Source: Sporopachydermia quercuum (Eukaryota; Ascomycota; Sporopachydermiomycetes; Sporopachydermiales; Sporopachydermiaceae). From it: a DNA stretch of 64,000 nt. The translations under genes were made by a program, and so were the position numbers. The stretch spans positions 992,001-1,056,000 of the forward strand of contig BCGN01000005.1 in NCBI GenBank assembly GCA_001599295.1, given 5' to 3'. The stretch's first letter is position 1; each line of letters starts with the position of its first letter. Positions 26,020 to 49,197 of this stretch are shown one piece after another. Under the pieces are notes generated by a model. It saw nothing but the letters and a program-made list of their open reading frames with translations, was not told the origin of the DNA and searched no databases.

Positions 26020-28044
26020 TCACATCTTGTGACAGCACGAAGAGGCATCCTGGGTAGTTATCTCTGATGTTGTATTGTTAACTAAAACGGATTTATTGAA
26101 CTTTGGATTTGATTGAGGAACATCCAAAGCAGGATTCTTCTCGAAAAAGTTGACAGGAAAAATATGAATTTGATGCATTTCTACGGGCATAACAGGGAAA
26201 TCTTCTGGTCTAGGAACATGTGTAAACCCTAAAGTAGCCCAAACAACAATATCTTCATTTCTAACATTATCAACACCATTAGCCCATTTAGCTAACCCAG
26301 TATCACCGTGCGATTGATTTGTAAATTCACCAGCAGCATATAAAGTATCATCAGCATACTTAGTGACCCAATAAGGCTTAGTAGCAAACTTTGCTCTTTT
26401 AACGTTAAATGATTCAGGGTCAGCAATTATTCCTTGAGCAGCTGGGACTTTGATTCTGTAGCCAACAGGTCGTTTTGAGATTGCGTTGATCTTTGATTCA
26501 TTTATAACAGTAAAAGATCTCGCGGTAGATGGGGAAGCATCACAAGATCCTGCTTTCTCAACGTAGTGCCGGTTGGTGATGTAACCTACCTTGTAAGGGT
26601 TTTCAGGAGAATCAGTAGGCATTGGAACAGCATCATCATAAACTAGAGTGTTCTTTTGACCATCAANGGCAGTATCAAATCGGAATGAAAGTAAATGCTG
26701 ATGATAAGCTGCCATAACACCAGGACCGACATTGGTACCCCATGGAACAACGACACCATCGTCAATTGGCATTGTTGATAGGATACCGGTTGCCCTGATT
26801 TGAATTGTAATACCAGCAGCTTGATCAAAAATATACTCAACAATGTATTCATAATTGGAAACAGTTGCAATACTTTGAACAACTAACTCTCTTCTTCTGG
26901 TGACATAAGCTCTTTCATTTCTATAGTTAACATGCTTCATTAACAAGCCATTATCTTGTTCGTGAAGACATACAATTGAATCCAATAAAGCAGGATCACC
27001 ATTAGCGCGGATTCTATGTCCATCAAAATAATGAATATAGCCAAGACAATCACATCCAAGCTTCAATTGATTAGCGCAAATTCCAAATCCAACATCACCT
27101 AAATCAAAAGCTTGCTTTCTATGGAAAGGCGCTCTTGGATCACCATATGGGACAGTCATTTCTGACAAAGACATTCTGTAGAAGACATCTCTTCCGTCAA
27201 AGGTAACGTCGTATAAGACACAACCTTCTCTTGTATTTGTAGATACTCTGAATTTCCATTTTTGCCATTCAACAACATTATCCTTGACCGAAAAGGAAGG
27301 ACCCTCTGCTTGTTCAACAGTCAATGGCTTTAATGGTCTTTCTGGCTCAGATATGAGTTGCTTATGATACTCAACAGCTTTGTAACCAGGATAGGGTTGA
27401 GTTGGAACAGTAGTGCTATCAGCACCTCCTGGCAAAAAATCCATTCTAACAAATTCCTTTGTTAGAGCATCGAAGACAGGAGAAAACTTTAAAGGTAACG
27501 AGTAGTGGTTTGCTTCAGGATGATCGACCTTCAGATACATATAGTGCTGAAGAAGGTATCGGTCTTCATTGTCATCATCTGTTCCATAAATCCAAGGATC
27601 AGAAATAACTTCGTATCCGGGAGGAAGCTTGAGTTTTTTGACTTCAGCCAAAACAAGTGGATGAGAAAGACAGGCAGCCTCGTGTTCAATGATATCATCT
27701 GGTTGGGCAGGACCAACGACACCTTTGGGAAGTGTTGTAGAGAGAATAAGATGTTTAGCAACTGTATTTACAATTGCTTTGTGAAGTAGAGTATCACCAA
27801 TAACGTTGTACAATACTGAAACAGTTCTTGGAACTGATGGTAAAGGTTGACCATGCCTTTCAGCAGAGATGTATTTCAACATCTTAGCTTTGGGAGGATC
27901 ATTTCTTTCAATGAATCTGAAGTGAATCTTTGATTGAGGATGATTGTCCTTTACTAACTTGGAACATAATTTGATCTCCTCTGGATGAAGAGGAGCGAAA
28001 GGATGTAAAGCTGCAATCTCCGCAGTGGTAGCTACTGATGCCAT
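26020..28044 (-). CDS. Copper-containing primary amine oxidase
   Basis: The 674-residue enzyme oxidises primary amines to aldehydes with ammonia and hydrogen peroxide, letting yeasts use amines as nitrogen source. The tyrosine converted to topaquinone is Tyr398 in SNYEYIVEY. The catalytic base is Asp341 in IHYFDGH. Copper ligands are His448 and His450 (YHQHLLSF) and His609 in FTHVPRPEDFP. Two N-terminal domains (about 15-225) precede the large beta-sandwich. The C-terminus has SSCC like Ogataea (Hansenula) amine oxidase. No clear PTS1 or N-terminal PTS2 is visible, although yeast relatives are peroxisomal. One ambiguous base is near 26667. Confidence 0.96.
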   Translation of the reverse strand: MASVATTAEIAALHPFAPLHPEEIKLCSKLVKDNHPQSKIHFRFIERNDPPKAKMLKYISAERHGQPLPSVPRTVSVLYNVIGDTLLHKAIVNTVAKHLILSTTLPKGVVGPAQPDDIIEHEAACLSHPLVLAEVKKLKLPPGYEVISDPWIYGTDDDNEDRYLLQHYMYLKVDHPEANHYSLPLKFSPVFDALTKEFVRMDFLPGGADSTTVPTQPYPGYKAVEYHKQLISEPERPLKPLTVEQAEGPSFSVKDNVVEWQKWKFRVSTNTREGCVLYDVTFDGRDVFYRMSLSEMTVPYGDPRAPFHRKQAFDLGDVGFGICANQLKLGCDCLGYIHYFDGHRIRANGDPALLDSIVCLHEQDNGLLMKHVNYRNERAYVTRRRELVVQSIATVSNYEYIVEYIFDQAAGITIQIRATGILSTMPIDDGVVVPWGTNVGPGVMAAYHQHLLSFRFDTAXDGQKNTLVYDDAVPMPTDSPENPYKVGYITNRHYVEKAGSCDASPSTARSFTVINESKINAISKRPVGYRIKVPAAQGIIADPESFNVKRAKFATKPYWVTKYADDTLYAAGEFTNQSHGDTGLAKWANGVDNVRNEDIVVWATLGFTHVPRPEDFPVMPVEMHQIHIFPVNFFEKNPALDVPQSNPKFNKSVLVNNTTSEITTQDASSCCHKM

Positions 28045-41061: not shown

Positions 41062-42575
41062 GTTGTAGTGAGTTGAACACCAATAAGGTAGCGGCGTGTA
41101 GTCTGTCAGACACTTGAAGGTCACCAAAATTCTGTTTTTGTAATTTTTCTAGCAGTTGCAATTTTGCTGTGATTTAGCTAACGGAGTAGAAGTTTTCGGC
41201 TCAGTTATCTCCAAAAAAAGTGAAAGAACTAGTGAATATCTCTATGGCGGAAGGTCAACATGGTTGATTCTGGGAGAAGGGGTGGGAAGAGGACTATTAA
41301 AAGAGAAATCCAGAAAGCAATAGGAAGCTACAAAGCTTATAAATGAGATCTTCAAATCTTCCAAGACACTAATTGCCTATTATTCAGGAATTTTGTCATC
41401 CAATCATCAGAACAATAGATTGATGGATGGCTGGTTAAAACTGAAAATTTCAATTACAATACCTTTTAAGGATATTGTGAGTCATTAGAGTGAGATTGAT
41501 GAGTGAATCATATTTCCTGATTTGGATGAACAGGGTTTTATGCACCAGCCATTTCGCTTGCAGGAAGAGGAATACATGTTGGATCTTTGGATTTCTGGGA
41601 AAAGGGACAATTAATAGAGTTTCGCGTTCTCGCGTTCATTTCTAAACTTTAATTTAAGTTAGATGAAAGGATAATTACTCTGTCGTGTCAAAAAAGACGG
41701 ATAATACAGGTTGGAAAGTTATCATTAGGTAAACTACAAGTGACAATTATCAGCAATAAAAGTACGATAAAATAATGGATTTAGTGCGTGATTGAGATCG
41801 AATTGTGGTTCCCCTTATATAGGAATGGCTAGATTTAGTTATAAATAGGGAACCTGTGTGTGTTGGTTCCATTGAGTTGACTTTGAACGTCAACATCTGT
41901 AGATGGACGATTGATTCATTATATCTGACAAAGGAGGTCCAATACCAAGAACATAGAAGAAAGGATCAACATTTCAATGTGTTGGTAGGATGTTTCGCTT
42001 ACATTTACATGCCAGGGGTGTCCCAACATAAATTCTAAATAATCATCACATGTGATCGATTTTGACATCAAACAACATAACATACATGACAATCAATAGG
42101 TCTCTCATCATACTCCATTAGATGCTGAAATCAGTTCACCAATGATGAATATCGACATTCAATATTTAATACATATAACATTCATAGAGATAAGTGAATA
42201 ATAGACATATATATATCTATTCTCTGCCTTTGTCGATCATCTAGTAAATGAGACGAAACTATACACCCTCCGAAATGTAGCGTTACCCGGATACCAAAGG
42301 TACAGCAGATCGATCGATCGATAGGTTCCCTCTGTACCATTGCCATGTTTTCCTTATGTAAATTGCGATTTCCCAACTGATATCTGAATGGTTAACGAGT
42401 TAGATTGTTTTTTTTTTTTTTTTTTTTTTTTGGTTAAAGCAGTGTTTTCGTGTTGATTGAATGTTGATCCATCCAACTTAATATTACACAAACATCTAAT
42501 TGGTTAGTTAGAGATACAATTGATATCAAACCTCTAAGGTAGAATCATCATTAGTAAACATCAATAGGTACCATA
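41062..42575. promoter_or_regulatory. Divergent promoter region, unknown gene / TPM1
   Basis: About 1.5 kb. It contains a GATC tandem (42308-42322) and a run of 24 T (42408-42431) some 145 bases before the TPM1 start, of the kind that keeps nucleosomes off yeast promoters. Short frames here start with TTG and are not called. Confidence 0.45.
42408..42431 (+). promoter_or_regulatory. Poly(dT) tract of 24 bases
   Basis: An uninterrupted T24 lies 145 bases upstream of the tropomyosin start codon. Poly(dA:dT) tracts exclude nucleosomes in yeast promoters, and this is the longest in the window. Confidence 0.55.
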
Positions 42576-43176
42576 ATGGATAAGCTTAAGGAAGTAAGTA
42601 TTATCAGTATTGCCTTGATTTATCGTGCATCAATTAATAGTTTTGCGTGTTTTTGAGAGAAGAGTTCATTGTGATGAGTATATACATGGAACTAACAAGA
42701 TTGTTTAGAAAATCGCTAATCTCAAGCTTGATGCTGAGAATGCTCAAGAAAAGGCTGAAGAAGCCCTCAGTAAGGTCAAAGAGTTAGAACAAGAAAACCT
42801 ACAAAAGGATCAAGAAATTGAAGCTTTGAACAGAAAGAACCAAGTTTTAGAACAACAACTTGAAGAATTGGAATCAAAGATTGCCGATAATAAACCTATC
42901 TTAGAAGAACACTCTTCCTTGAANTCTCACAATGACAATCATGTTAAGAAGATTCAGGAATTAGAAGAGACTTTAGAAGAAGTTGAAGCTCAATTAAAGG
43001 GCTCTACTAACAAGGTGAGAGAGCTAGATATTAAGGCAGAACAAGCTGAGAAGAAAGTTGTTTCTTTGAAACAAGAAAATGAAGCATGGGAACAAAAATT
43101 CGAAGAACTGTCTGAAAAGTACGCTGCTGCCAAGGCCGAATTGGAAGAGATATCTCAACAATTGGAATCTATTTAA
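42576..43176 (+). CDS. TPM1: Tropomyosin, spliced
   Basis: Exons 42576-42593 (MDKLKE) and 42709-43176 give 161 residues, the length of S. cerevisiae Tpm2. The intron has GTAAGT, AACTAAC and a TTTAG acceptor. The whole protein is a heptad coiled coil: KIANLKLDAENAQEKAEEAL, then LEQENLQKDQEIEALNRKNQ, and it ends AKAELEEISQQLESI. Tropomyosin binds along formin-made actin cables used for polarised transport and cytokinesis. The stop is TAA followed by CTAG, and the same frame then stays open for 122 codons. EOS1 lies downstream on the same strand, as in S. cerevisiae. One ambiguous base is near 42924. Confidence 0.96.
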
Positions 43177-43545
43177 CTAGATTCTTTATTGTCATCTAGT
43201 TTCGATCTTGCTGATAGTTCAAATGAAGCTATAAATGAAAATAGAAGTTCTATTGCTGAAATACCATTAGATGATGAGAGAGTTTTCCGACTTGATCCTC
43301 TTCATCTATTTCCTCTATTTCGTATCAACTTGTGGAAATATTGTACAAGAGGTTTCAAAATGAGCAAAATATCCTTGTTAATTTATAAAGCTTCAATCAA
43401 TAGATTGTCTGCTATACCTTTAGGTCTATTAGGTCTCATATCTATTGTCTGGTTTCCGGGATATTGCGGTGAAATTTTTGTTATTGTTCTACTCTTTTAT
43501 TATTTATGTGTATCATTTAGTATTAACAAGCGAACTCAAATATAA
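43177..43545 (+). CDS. In-frame 122-codon extension after the tropomyosin stop, two-TM tail
   Basis: Directly after the tropomyosin TAA the frame continues CTA GAT TCT and runs 122 codons to the TAA at 43543-43545. The encoded sequence is protein-like: an acidic, Ser/Asn-rich linker, RVFRLDPLHLFPLFRINLWK, then two hydrophobic segments (LSAIPLGLLGLISIVWF and EIFVIVLLFYYLCVSF) and a short basic end. The only in-frame ATG (43360) would miss the first half. It may be made by stop read-through, or by splicing out the stop: a GTACGC donor at 43119 and a CTAG acceptor at 43199 are in phase. It could also be a separate gene or a relic. I recognise no family. Confidence 0.4.
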   Translation, partial: LDSLLSSSFDLADSSNEAINENRSSIAEIPLDDERVFRLDPLHLFPLFRINLWKYCTRGFKMSKISLLIYKASINRLSAIPLGLLGLISIVWFPGYCGEIFVIVLLFYYLCVSFSINKRTQI

Positions 43546-45572
43546 TTTAGCATCAATCTATGATTAAATCCTCAATTATAATGTACATTAAGTTATCCAA
43601 TTCAGACAACTCACGTTCTTTATTGTCAGTATTTCATGGATCTAATTCATTCTGACTAGTGTACAAAGTATATTCCACTTTTGAAAGAATATTTGGCCTA
43701 TATTGAAAGATCAACACTCATTATCAACTCTAACCTAGTTAAATATATGTAAATCTTCATAAGCTTGTACTATCGGCTCTATAACGTCAAATTACCATTC
43801 AATTGAATCGGTTTACCTTTTCTTTGTTCATGCAAATACCAAATTACACATTAAATGAAACTTCGTTCAATTTCAGCACCAGTCCCAATGTAGCAGATAA
43901 GTACATTAGTTGGAATATTGGATGCTTTCACTGATAGAAGTGGAGATATTATAGAAGTTGGGCGTTTATAAGTTTTGACAATAACTGGTGCCTAGTTTGG
44001 ATGCTCAGTTGACTATTGACAGGACACTTTATTCCTTTATTATGAGAGTAATTCAATCGTAATGAATTAAGTGGAAGCATGATACCAGGATTTTACCTTT
44101 ATTTGACTGAGCTCATCTAACTAATTATCTACAACTATTGGTCAGAAGATTTCATTGGTTTTATTAGAAAGATAAATAAGTATAAAGAATAAATATTGAT
44201 TTGATGCAATTTTTCTTCAAATTACTAGATTGTCTGTTTCTCTCATTCAACTGATATAATCTCTTACGTACGCCTAGAAGATTTAATCATATTAATTTAA
44301 TTATTTCATCTTAGAAAAATTAGCGAGTTGATCAATCGTACTTGAAGATGTGTGTTCGGTATTTGACACTATAGCATCTGAAATCTCCCAAAGTCAAGGA
44401 TTTGACTATGGTTATGGGCTCACCGCATTAGTTGGAAATATCAAAAAATGAAACAAGAATTTTTATTTAAATGCACTGACTCAATTGCAATCAGATAAAT
44501 GATTGGAAAATACTTTCCTTTTACCACCGTTTTCGTTTCGTTTCGTTTCGTTTCTTTCAATATTTGGGACTATCCGTATAAGATACTGGCAGGTATTCTC
44601 ATTATATTCCCATTACTAGACTATCATTAGTGCGTGCAGCTCCCAGTTATTTATGTGTTACATCATAAACTAGATAACGTTTCATCTTTCAATTGATCAA
44701 TAATATCATCTTCCAATAAACTAATGTAAGCAAGCCCCTACATTGGGTAATTAACTCTTTGCTGTCACATAATTGCAAACTCCCACAACATATATATACA
44801 CATGCATTCTTCTCTCATATCTTGTTGGTTGCCAACCTGATTACGCACTTATTACACCACACCTCTCCCCAGCTCCATCAACTTCCTTGGGCTCCACGAC
44901 ATCAATCGCTAATTAAAGAAAGCGCACAATCCTAAACTGAAACTAGTTAATAATATCTGCGTTGAGAACCTAAGGTGTAAGTGCATCGATTAAGGGCATC
45001 GTCAAACTTTACTGAAAATTTCTCGTTGATCCATATTCGGTAAGTATCTGCATATTTGTGCATATTAGGAAGATTGTGGCACAATAAGAAATGTGCCCAG
45101 TCACAAAAAACGATTTGAACGTTGGTTATGTAGATATTCTATAAGGAGAAGGTATGTCAGACGAAGGAGAANGAAAGAAAGGTATATGATTTGTTATTGA
45201 TTGCTCTGGTAAGGAAATTTTACATCTAACAGTAATCTTAAAATTTATCTAGAATTTTCATCCCTGGGTTAACTGTGCTTAAAAGGAGTAATTTTTATTG
45301 CACGAGAGTTTTAATGCAAAAGTCGAGCTCTAGTTCTGCGTGTCAAGCATAGAAGCCGTTATAATCACAGACGATACTCTGATCTGTGGTTTCAAAGAAT
45401 AATAGTTTTATCTGCATTGGAGTAGTTACTACAAGTGCAGATTAGAGAAGCGACGACGGTCAGCAGTTGAACATTGCTACATAATAGTTGTAGAGTGGTC
45501 AGGAGGAGCAACTGAATATTCTTGTTCATTCTGAGCATTAGCTAAACAGAAAAGAAATTGTAGAAGACTATC
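43546..45572. other. 2-kb intergenic region upstream of EOS1
   Basis: No gene recognised. It holds a TTTCG pentamer tandem (44531-44550) and a TGCATATTTGTGCA inverted repeat (45049-45062). A short upstream frame begins with the ATG at 45154 and runs into a GTATAT donor-like site. With an acceptor at about 45252 it would give only 16 residues, so a spliced leader with an upstream frame is possible but unproven. Confidence 0.4.
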
Positions 45573-46907
45573 ATGACGATGACACTTGCCAACCCCAGAC
45601 TTGATGCTTCTATATATGTATCTTCATTTTCTGATTCCGAAGATTATGATGATGATCAGACTTCTCACAGGAACGTTCGAAATAGACATAGATCGTATAA
45701 TAGATCATTGAATGGGTCCACCATATTTCCTGACAGTTCCAACAACGCGAATCAGAACTCAAGACTGAAAAAGACCAGACAACTCAGCGGTCACAGCAGA
45801 AGGTCATCTAATAATGGCTTGAAAACAACACAATCTCCGGACTATTGTGATGACCCCCCTGATTATAATCAGATAGTTAGCTGTTCATCAACACCATCGT
45901 ATGAACATACTGTCAGAGCAATTAGCTTTTCTGAGAACAGTGCAAGATATGTCACAAGCAATGGGGTCTCTATTTCATCGCCTGCTAGTTTTGTTAACCT
46001 TGCAGCTCAGAGGAGGGCTAGTAATCTAAATCCGAATGCCATTATCGATGTGGACTTAGATGAAAGCCTATCTAGAGATCACAACATTAGGTACATCCAA
46101 GCTTATAATCAAACAACTTCCTCTGAACCAACCAGTGTAAATATAAGTTCCTCTACCAGTGTTTTACCTGAATTGGATCGAATTCCGTCTTATGCTGAAT
46201 CAACGAATACAACCTCTCAACTGAATGTCCTCGAAGCATCTCCTGAACTACCATCTTTATCACTAACGTCATCCTCATCATCCACTAATAAGATCAACTC
46301 GTACATGTCTAAACGGGAACGATTCATTTTGAAGGCATGTCTAGCTATAACTCTTATTCCATCTTTTACTGGATCTTGTAGTTGTATGAACCAGGCATAT
46401 CAGATATACAAAGCTACCAGGAAATCTTCAGAGTCATCGCTTTTTGTTACACCATTGACGGAAGCTCGGACATCAGAGTATTTACTAGCTGTTGTGTGGA
46501 CAATTGTATGCGGATATCTTTCATACTCTGTACTGAAGGGTCTGATAGTAAGATGGATTTTGACATATTCAGTGCCTGCAACTATTGTGCGGGCTTTAGT
46601 GTGTTCAATGGGTTATTTCATTCTGTGTCATGCTTTAGTGGAAATTCTTTCTGCAGATAGGAATTACCTGCTACAAACTTGGATTCTCATTGCATGTATA
46701 TTGACATGTGCTTTTATCGTTCAGGATTATGTTACAAGTAGTATTAAAAGNAATGATTCAAGCAAGAAGAAGAATAGATCAGTTGATTTGTATAATATAG
46801 CAGTGTTTGCCGTGGTTCCAGTTGGTCTTGCAAGTTTCTTAACCATGATTGGTCTGATAAGGACGTTGATGATTATGAGATTAGAAATTTATACGGAGAA
46901 GTCTTAG
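45573..46907 (+). CDS. EOS1: Multi-pass ER protein Eos1 (N-glycosylation, oxidative stress)
   Basis: The first about 245 of 444 residues are Ser/Asn-rich and disordered. From about 250 the conserved Eos1 domain follows: SKRERFILKACLAITLIP, SEYLLAVVWTIVCGYLSYSV, LKGLIVRWILTYSVPATIVR, TWILIACILTCAFIVQDYV and VFAVVPVGLASFLTMIGLIR. It has about four to five membrane spans. Eos1 is an ER membrane protein needed for normal N-glycosylation and hydrogen-peroxide tolerance in S. cerevisiae. Its position downstream of TPM1 on the same strand matches that species. The identification rests on remembered family features plus synteny. One ambiguous base is near 46751. Confidence 0.88.
   Translation: MTMTLANPRLDASIYVSSFSDSEDYDDDQTSHRNVRNRHRSYNRSLNGSTIFPDSSNNANQNSRLKKTRQLSGHSRRSSNNGLKTTQSPDYCDDPPDYNQIVSCSSTPSYEHTVRAISFSENSARYVTSNGVSISSPASFVNLAAQRRASNLNPNAIIDVDLDESLSRDHNIRYIQAYNQTTSSEPTSVNISSSTSVLPELDRIPSYAESTNTTSQLNVLEASPELPSLSLTSSSSSTNKINSYMSKRERFILKACLAITLIPSFTGSCSCMNQAYQIYKATRKSSESSLFVTPLTEARTSEYLLAVVWTIVCGYLSYSVLKGLIVRWILTYSVPATIVRALVCSMGYFILCHALVEILSADRNYLLQTWILIACILTCAFIVQDYVTSSIKXNDSSKKKNRSVDLYNIAVFAVVPVGLASFLTMIGLIRTLMIMRLEIYTEKS

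Positions 46908-47774: not shown

Positions 47775-49197
<1,423 letters not shown>

What the first reader, a model, noticed from the sequence alone, without database searches (positions are those of the whole stretch)
42709..43545. Tropomyosin frame stays open for 122 codons past its stop, encoding a two-TM tail
The last tropomyosin codon is followed by TAA CTAG, and the same frame then runs 122 codons to the next stop. With about 7% stop codons expected per codon in DNA this AT-rich, such a run by chance is of order 1 in 10,000. The encoded tail is protein-like (acidic linker, then RLDPLHLFPLF, then two hydrophobic segments) but lacks a start for its first half. CUA after a stop codon is a known leaky read-through context, best described for UGA. 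An in-phase donor/acceptor pair (GTACGC at 43119, CTAG at 43199) could instead remove the stop. Either route would give a membrane-anchored tropomyosin isoform, which I have not seen described.
Basis: partly seen in the sequence, partly recalled or inferred. Interest (0 to 1): 0.75.

Follow-up and report, generated by a model that had tools for sequence, protein, structure and literature searches.

The report
Coding-like membrane tail behind yeast tropomyosin
In a yeast, the DNA just after the tropomyosin gene's stop signal looks partly like real protein-coding sequence ending in two membrane segments, so the cell might make a second, membrane-anchored tropomyosin, but no RNA or protein evidence shows that it does.

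Summary
A complete tropomyosin gene (161 aa) ends at TAA 43174-43176, and the frame then stays open for 122 codons. None of 94 other gene ends has such a run (longest 66); simulated chance is 2.7e-4. The first half of the tail, which has no ATG, carries a codon signal like real exons: 0 of 93 other gene ends reach its score or frame contrast. By the same model the second half is not distinguishable from non-coding DNA; judged only against other membrane-like segments, it leans to coding. So the tail is probably coding, or was recently. The only in-phase splice partner found with a branch-like match is tropomyosin.

The route is unresolved. UAA in this context is not known to be leaky, and the splice pair is weak: 16 of 93 control genes have one like it. 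No relative of the tail was found in the collections searched. One related tropomyosin of unnamed source runs 14 codons past the stop position, with slight similarity (P about 0.02). A membrane-anchored tropomyosin is a live hypothesis, not a finding. Chance, a relic and a separate gene remain possible.

The parts
42576..42593 (+). tropomyosin exon 1, ATG GAT AAG CTT AAG GAA (MDKLKE)
   Evidence: read; the relative P0001 also begins MDKLKE
42594..42708 (+). tropomyosin intron: GTAAGT ... ACTAAC ... TTTAG, 115 nt
42709..43176 (+). tropomyosin exon 2 (155 codons) with TAA stop 43174-43176
   Evidence: PF00261 E 1e-31; ends flush with the 161-residue tropomyosin chain 8puz_A; P0002 as listed ends at the same residue
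43177..43545 (+). in-frame open tail, 122 codons plus TAA; acidic linker then two hydrophobic segments
43180..43299 (+). segment of the tail with the strongest coding signal (12.6 bits)
   Evidence: 43201-43293, picked after seeing the track, is matched in codon score by 1 of 197 non-genic open frames
43393..43506 (+). two TM-like windows (SINRLSAIPLGLLGLISIV, WFPGYCGEIFVIVLLFYYL)
   Evidence: hydropathy and TM-codon comparison
43360..43545 (+). 61-codon ATG-started ORF inside the tail (context CAAAATGAGC)
   Evidence: possible independent small protein
43119..43199 (+). candidate alternative intron, GTACGC ... TTTAAC ... CTAG, 81 nt; would remove the last tropomyosin residues and the stop
   Evidence: not better than chance
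45573..46907 (+). next gene on this strand with a family match, EOS1
   Evidence: PF12326 E 7.6e-37

Best explanation
The tail is a genuine protein-coding 3' extension of the tropomyosin gene. A minority of products bypass the TAA, either by splicing out 43119-43199 or by ribosomes reading through UAA, and carry an acidic linker plus a two-pass membrane anchor. The main product stays the ordinary 161-aa soluble tropomyosin. Shown: a complete tropomyosin ending at the usual place, an open frame, and a coding-like signal in the first half of that frame. Inferred: that it is expressed, that it is joined to tropomyosin, the route (I lean slightly to splicing), and that the hydrophobic segments sit in a membrane.
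For: Open run P 2.7e-4 and 0 of 94 other gene ends as long. First-half codon score and frame contrast exceed 93 of 93 other gene ends. With a model trained without window genes, 5 of 197 non-genic open frames reach the first half's score, 0 of 197 its synonymous score and 8 of 197 its positional frame score; several of the seven top frames listed look like real exons (my reading). Maximal segment 12.6 bits against at most 7.4 in 93 controls (stops cost 8 bits there, so part of this is the open frame itself). The two TM-like windows score +2.5 and +1.7 bits; 7.2% and 7.8% of chance TM windows and 58% and 69% of real ones do as well. The best segment starts at codon 2 of the tail, leaving little room for a separate promoter and start, although the first 8 codons add only 0.4 bits. 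Of donors GTA[ACT]G[TC] or GTGAG[TC] in 41601-43176 there are two, tropomyosin's own and 43119; as tropomyosin donors only the latter is in phase with a YAG acceptor in 43177-43300. A relative's tropomyosin runs past the stop position with a residue pattern like the tail's start (P 0.019 fixed register, 0.066 with one residue of slack).
Against: No relative of the tail in the collections searched. By the general codon model the second half looks non-coding: 113 of 197 non-genic frames score as high or higher, and for the whole tail 27 of 197 do, while 97% of 58 held-out coding windows score higher than the tail; 3 of 93 gene ends reach the 122-codon score. (EOS1, itself a membrane protein, is also low: 5th percentile of coding.) UAA in this context is not known to be leaky. 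The splice pair is chance-level and would cut off tropomyosin residues that relatives keep. P0002 as listed ends at the stop position. The downstream RNA hairpin is not unusual (z -1.37, 18 of 200 shuffles as good). The first TATATA/TATGTA/TACATA motif lies beyond the tail at 43746, but 27 of 92 controls are as far.
Confidence: 0.45

Rival explanations
1. The tail is (part of) a separate small membrane-protein gene with its own transcript, starting at the ATG at 43360 or at a non-AUG or unrecognised start further up, and merely abuts tropomyosin in frame.
For: ATG at 43360 has an A-rich context. In-frame placement costs only a factor of three by chance (my arithmetic).
Against: The strongest coding signal lies before the first ATG (43180-43299). 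The only ATG-started first exon found that does not start at tropomyosin's ATG is 40 nt long, uses the same weak donor, and pairs with acceptors without a branch match (which tested two donor patterns only). There is almost no room for a promoter.
Confidence: 0.2
2. The tail is a decaying relic of a former coding sequence (an old gene end or extension of tropomyosin), no longer translated.
For: Coding signal without a usable start; no relatives found; weak signal in the second half.
Against: No stop in 122 codons, so it would have to be young; no second copy found in the genome.
Confidence: 0.15
3. Chance: an open run in 3' untranslated DNA whose composition happens to look coding.
For: About one run this long per genome of thousands of genes is expected at P 2.7e-4 (my arithmetic), and the finding was picked because it stood out. 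The second half is not distinguishable from non-coding by the general model. TM-like segments are not rare in such DNA: 4.4% of simulated tails have two.
Against: The first half's codon signal is conditional on the open frame and still extreme: P 0.0005 (2 of 4000) against simulated stop-free frames, 0 of 93 gene ends.
Confidence: 0.15

Closest known systems
Ascomycete tropomyosin (S. cerevisiae Tpm1/Tpm2, S. pombe Cdc8)
   Same: A 161-aa coiled coil ending flush with the 161-residue chain 8puz_A, molecule name Tropomyosin (that it is S. pombe Cdc8 is recalled); Pfam PF00261.
   Different: Known yeast tropomyosins are soluble and have no membrane tail (recalled; no such isoform stood out in the listings, where one search listed 20 of 316 papers).
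Programmed stop-codon readthrough, UGA-CUA(G) type (fungal metabolic enzymes, mammalian MDH1, LDHB, AQP4; passages)
   Same: CUAG follows the stop, and a protein-like in-frame extension follows.
   Different: The stop is UAA, not UGA, preceded by U; UAA lowered readthrough in the fungal tests.
Alternative splicing giving two proteins from one gene in fungi (SKI7/HBS1, PMC3597508, listing and start of abstract only)
   Same: One gene, two products through optional splicing, is the kind of mechanism proposed.
   Different: Here the donor and branch site are non-consensus and no junction has been seen.
Recently gained C-termini in Saccharomyces (PMC4494051, passages), which include TPM2
   Same: Shows that a yeast tropomyosin C-terminus can change within a species.
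   Different: That case, in two strains, is a frameshift replacing 42 residues with 45, not an extension behind an intact stop; no membrane anchor is mentioned in the passages seen.

Membership tests
Tropomyosin (PF00261) | Tropomyosin profile match over the coiled coil | tested here: met
   E 1e-31, 110.7 bits, cut-off 38.6
Tropomyosin (PF00261) | Usual fungal length and C-terminal end | tested here: met
   161 aa; query 6-154 aligns to 12-160 of a 161-residue chain; P0002 as listed ends at the same residue; P0001 runs on 14 residues
Programmed readthrough of the UGA-CUA type | UGA stop codon | tested here: not met
   stop is TAA
Programmed readthrough of the UGA-CUA type | CUA(G) directly after the stop | tested here: met
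   TAACTAG
Programmed readthrough (any type) | Coding signature beyond the stop | tested here: met
   first half only by the general codon model; second half only against other TM-like windows
Programmed readthrough (any type) | Conservation of stop context and downstream frame in relatives | tested here: inconclusive
   only P0001 and P0002 found; P0001 lacks a stop at that position and runs 14 codons, P0002 as listed ends there
Programmed readthrough (any type) | Translation past the stop observed | not testable with these tools
   no ribosome profiling or proteomics
Alternative intron spanning the stop | Consensus donor, branch and acceptor | tested here: not met
   GTACGC donor and TTTAAC branch are non-consensus; acceptor CTAG acceptable; 16 of 93 controls have such an in-phase pair
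Alternative intron spanning the stop | Spliced reads | not testable with these tools
   no RNA data

The most novel reading that the evidence does not exclude
A budding yeast with one tropomyosin gene makes two tropomyosins from it: the ordinary soluble one and, by bypassing the stop, one carrying a two-pass membrane anchor that could tether actin cables to a membrane.
Probability: 0.3. Interest if true: 0.85.

Novelty: new variant of a known kind. Interest (0 to 1): 0.55.

Why it matters
How actin cables are attached to membranes in yeast, and how one tropomyosin gene could serve several filament populations, are open questions (general knowledge, not from a call). A membrane-anchored tropomyosin would be a direct physical link. 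It would also be an example, in a cellular gene, of a long extension behind UAA or of an optional intron spanning the stop, in an intron-poor group. The first test is simple: one RT-PCR.

Tried and rejected
Reassigned stop codon: rejected. Among 93 other gene ends none reaches the tail's score or contrast past its stop over 61 codons, and TAA, TGA and TAG all serve as gene ends (37, 32 and 24 of 93).

Sequencing error making a false stop: unlikely, since the stop sits where tropomyosins end.

EOS1 fragment: rejected. An EOS1 gene lies 2.4 kb downstream and the tail has no Pfam match up to E 10 (HMMER's filters drop most weak matches).

Alternative splicing from tropomyosin's own first donor: no YAG acceptor of the right phase in 43177-43300 (up to 43364, shows only non-YAG ones).

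RNA structure at the stop: z -1.37, not unusual. No Rfam match at gathering threshold in 41200-45600.

Structure prediction of the tail from one sequence: mean pLDDT 56.9, too low for a fold search, so none was run.

That it is a yeast is inferred from its genes.

Full report
What is there. At 42576-43176 is a complete tropomyosin gene: exon 1 MDKLKE, a 115-nt intron with GTAAGT, ACTAAC and TTTAG, and exon 2 of 155 codons ending at TAA. It matches PF00261 at E 1e-31. With 161 residues it ends flush with the 161-residue tropomyosin chain 8puz_A, and P0002, a relative from the protein collection, ends as listed at the same residue. It is the only tropomyosin found in the genome: the second hit is a 26%-identical piece of a 2248-codon open frame. 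The next gene on this strand with a family match, 2.4 kb on, is EOS1 (PF12326). I recall that TPM1 and EOS1 are also neighbours in S. cerevisiae; this was not checked here.

The open tail. After TAA 43174-43176 the frame is open for 122 codons to TAA 43543-43545. In 94 other gene ends from 264 kb the mean run is 11.6 codons and the longest 66. A Markov model of the non-coding DNA gives 2.7e-4 for 122 or more; among 13,325 stop-to-stop runs in non-genic DNA 4 are as long. Over a whole genome about one such run past a stop is expected by chance (my arithmetic), so length alone does not settle it.

Coding signal. I trained a codon model on 75 genes against 106 kb of non-genic DNA less the 4.4-kb stretch holding the tail. 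Scored on the 61 codons after the stop, tropomyosin's tail exceeds 93 of 93 other gene ends, both in score and in contrast with the other two frames. Over 122 codons, 3 of 93 reach its score and 0 of 93 its contrast. Against 4000 simulated stop-free frames, P is 0.0005 for the first half, 0.34 for the second and 0.002 for the whole. Among 197 non-genic open frames of 61 codons or more, 5 reach the first half's score and 0 its contrast. With window genes left out of training, of the same 197 frames 5, 0 and 8 reach the first half in codon score, synonymous score and positional frame score; 113, 32 and 60 reach the second half; 27, 5 and 21 reach the whole. Several of the seven top frames listed there look like real exons (my reading). 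For 43201-43293, chosen after seeing the track, the counts are 1, 2 and 1. The best segment is 43180-43299 with 12.6 bits; the highest of 93 controls is 7.4, though stops cost 8 bits in that test, so it partly restates the open frame. Taken whole, the tail scores low for coding: 97% of 58 held-out coding windows score higher, and it lies at the 3rd percentile of 298 coding windows, with EOS1 at the 5th.

The membrane half. The general model penalises hydrophobic residues. Against TM-like windows only (64 from genes, 167 from non-genic frames), the tail's two windows, 43393-43506, score +2.5 and +1.7 bits; 7.2% and 7.8% of chance windows and 58% and 69% of real ones do as well. The control windows were scored by a model trained on themselves, which spreads the two groups apart; the tail was not in the training set. 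Two TM-like windows occur in 4.4% of simulated tails, so the hydropathy itself is weak evidence.

Relatives. No relative of the tail was found in 5.8 billion proteins (10 candidates, none at E 10 or better), Pfam, PDB, viral contigs (9 pattern matches, none confirmed) or elsewhere in the genome. The protein collection holds few such organisms: only P0001 and P0002 match tropomyosin at E 0.001, so absence means little. P0001, 59-61% identical to this tropomyosin, reads 14 codons past the position of the stop, WDTPDSRRFDGFRR. The tail begins LDSLLSSSFDLADS. The similarity in that register has P 0.019 by shuffling, 0.066 with one residue of slack, and 1.1% of 2881 chance-frame pieces score as well. 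It is a lead only. P0001's DNA could not be fetched.

Routes. (1) Readthrough: the context is ATT TAA CTA G. The published motif in fungi is UGA followed by CU, and UAG or UAA lowered readthrough (PMC4207609, passages). UAA is given as the stop with least readthrough (PMC12233894, passages). The RNA hairpin downstream is unremarkable. (2) Splicing: the donor GTACGC at 43119 and acceptor CTAG at 43199 are in phase, as are the acceptors ending at 43217 and 43244. By the two donor patterns used, the only other donor in 41601-43176 is tropomyosin's own. Yet 16 of 93 control gene ends have an in-phase pair of this type, and the branch box is only YTNAY. (3) A separate gene: the first ATG is at 43360, behind the strongest coding signal, and no good first exon was found.

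Verdict. The tail is probably coding or was so recently, and tropomyosin is its most likely partner. Whether the joined protein is made is not shown. The literature searches for such an isoform (held library only; 3, 1, 0, 316 and 5 papers, of the 316 only 20 listed) showed nothing that describes one in titles, starts of abstracts or the passages read in PMC4494051 and PMC12440208.

Noticed in passing
47775-48755 (-): Queuine tRNA-ribosyltransferase, catalytic-subunit-like (PF01702, E 1e-117), with a short further match just upstream at C5:1040850-1040969 (window 48850-48969, one TAA inside) and a second TGT match at C3:1738822-1739226 (E 6.8e-18). As recalled, S. cerevisiae lacks queuosine in tRNA, so this yeast's equipment may interest specialists.
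   Followed up: partly
43005-43011: A perfect TACTAAC branch box inside tropomyosin exon 2, followed by a CTAG ending at 43028; using it with the gene's own donor would shift the frame (my count).
   Followed up: partly
30 single positions across the window: N letters, nearly all isolated, perhaps masked heterozygous sites of a diploid; none lies in the tail.
   Followed up: no
26020-28044 (-): Copper amine oxidase, far closer to PDB chain 3loy_A (836 bits) than to the next solved enzymes, named peroxisomal amine oxidases (about 370-380 bits).
   Followed up: no
43546-45572: A 2-kb gap between the tail and EOS1 in which stop-free 31-codon windows score at most about +0.11 bits per codon, with no Rfam match.
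   Followed up: partly
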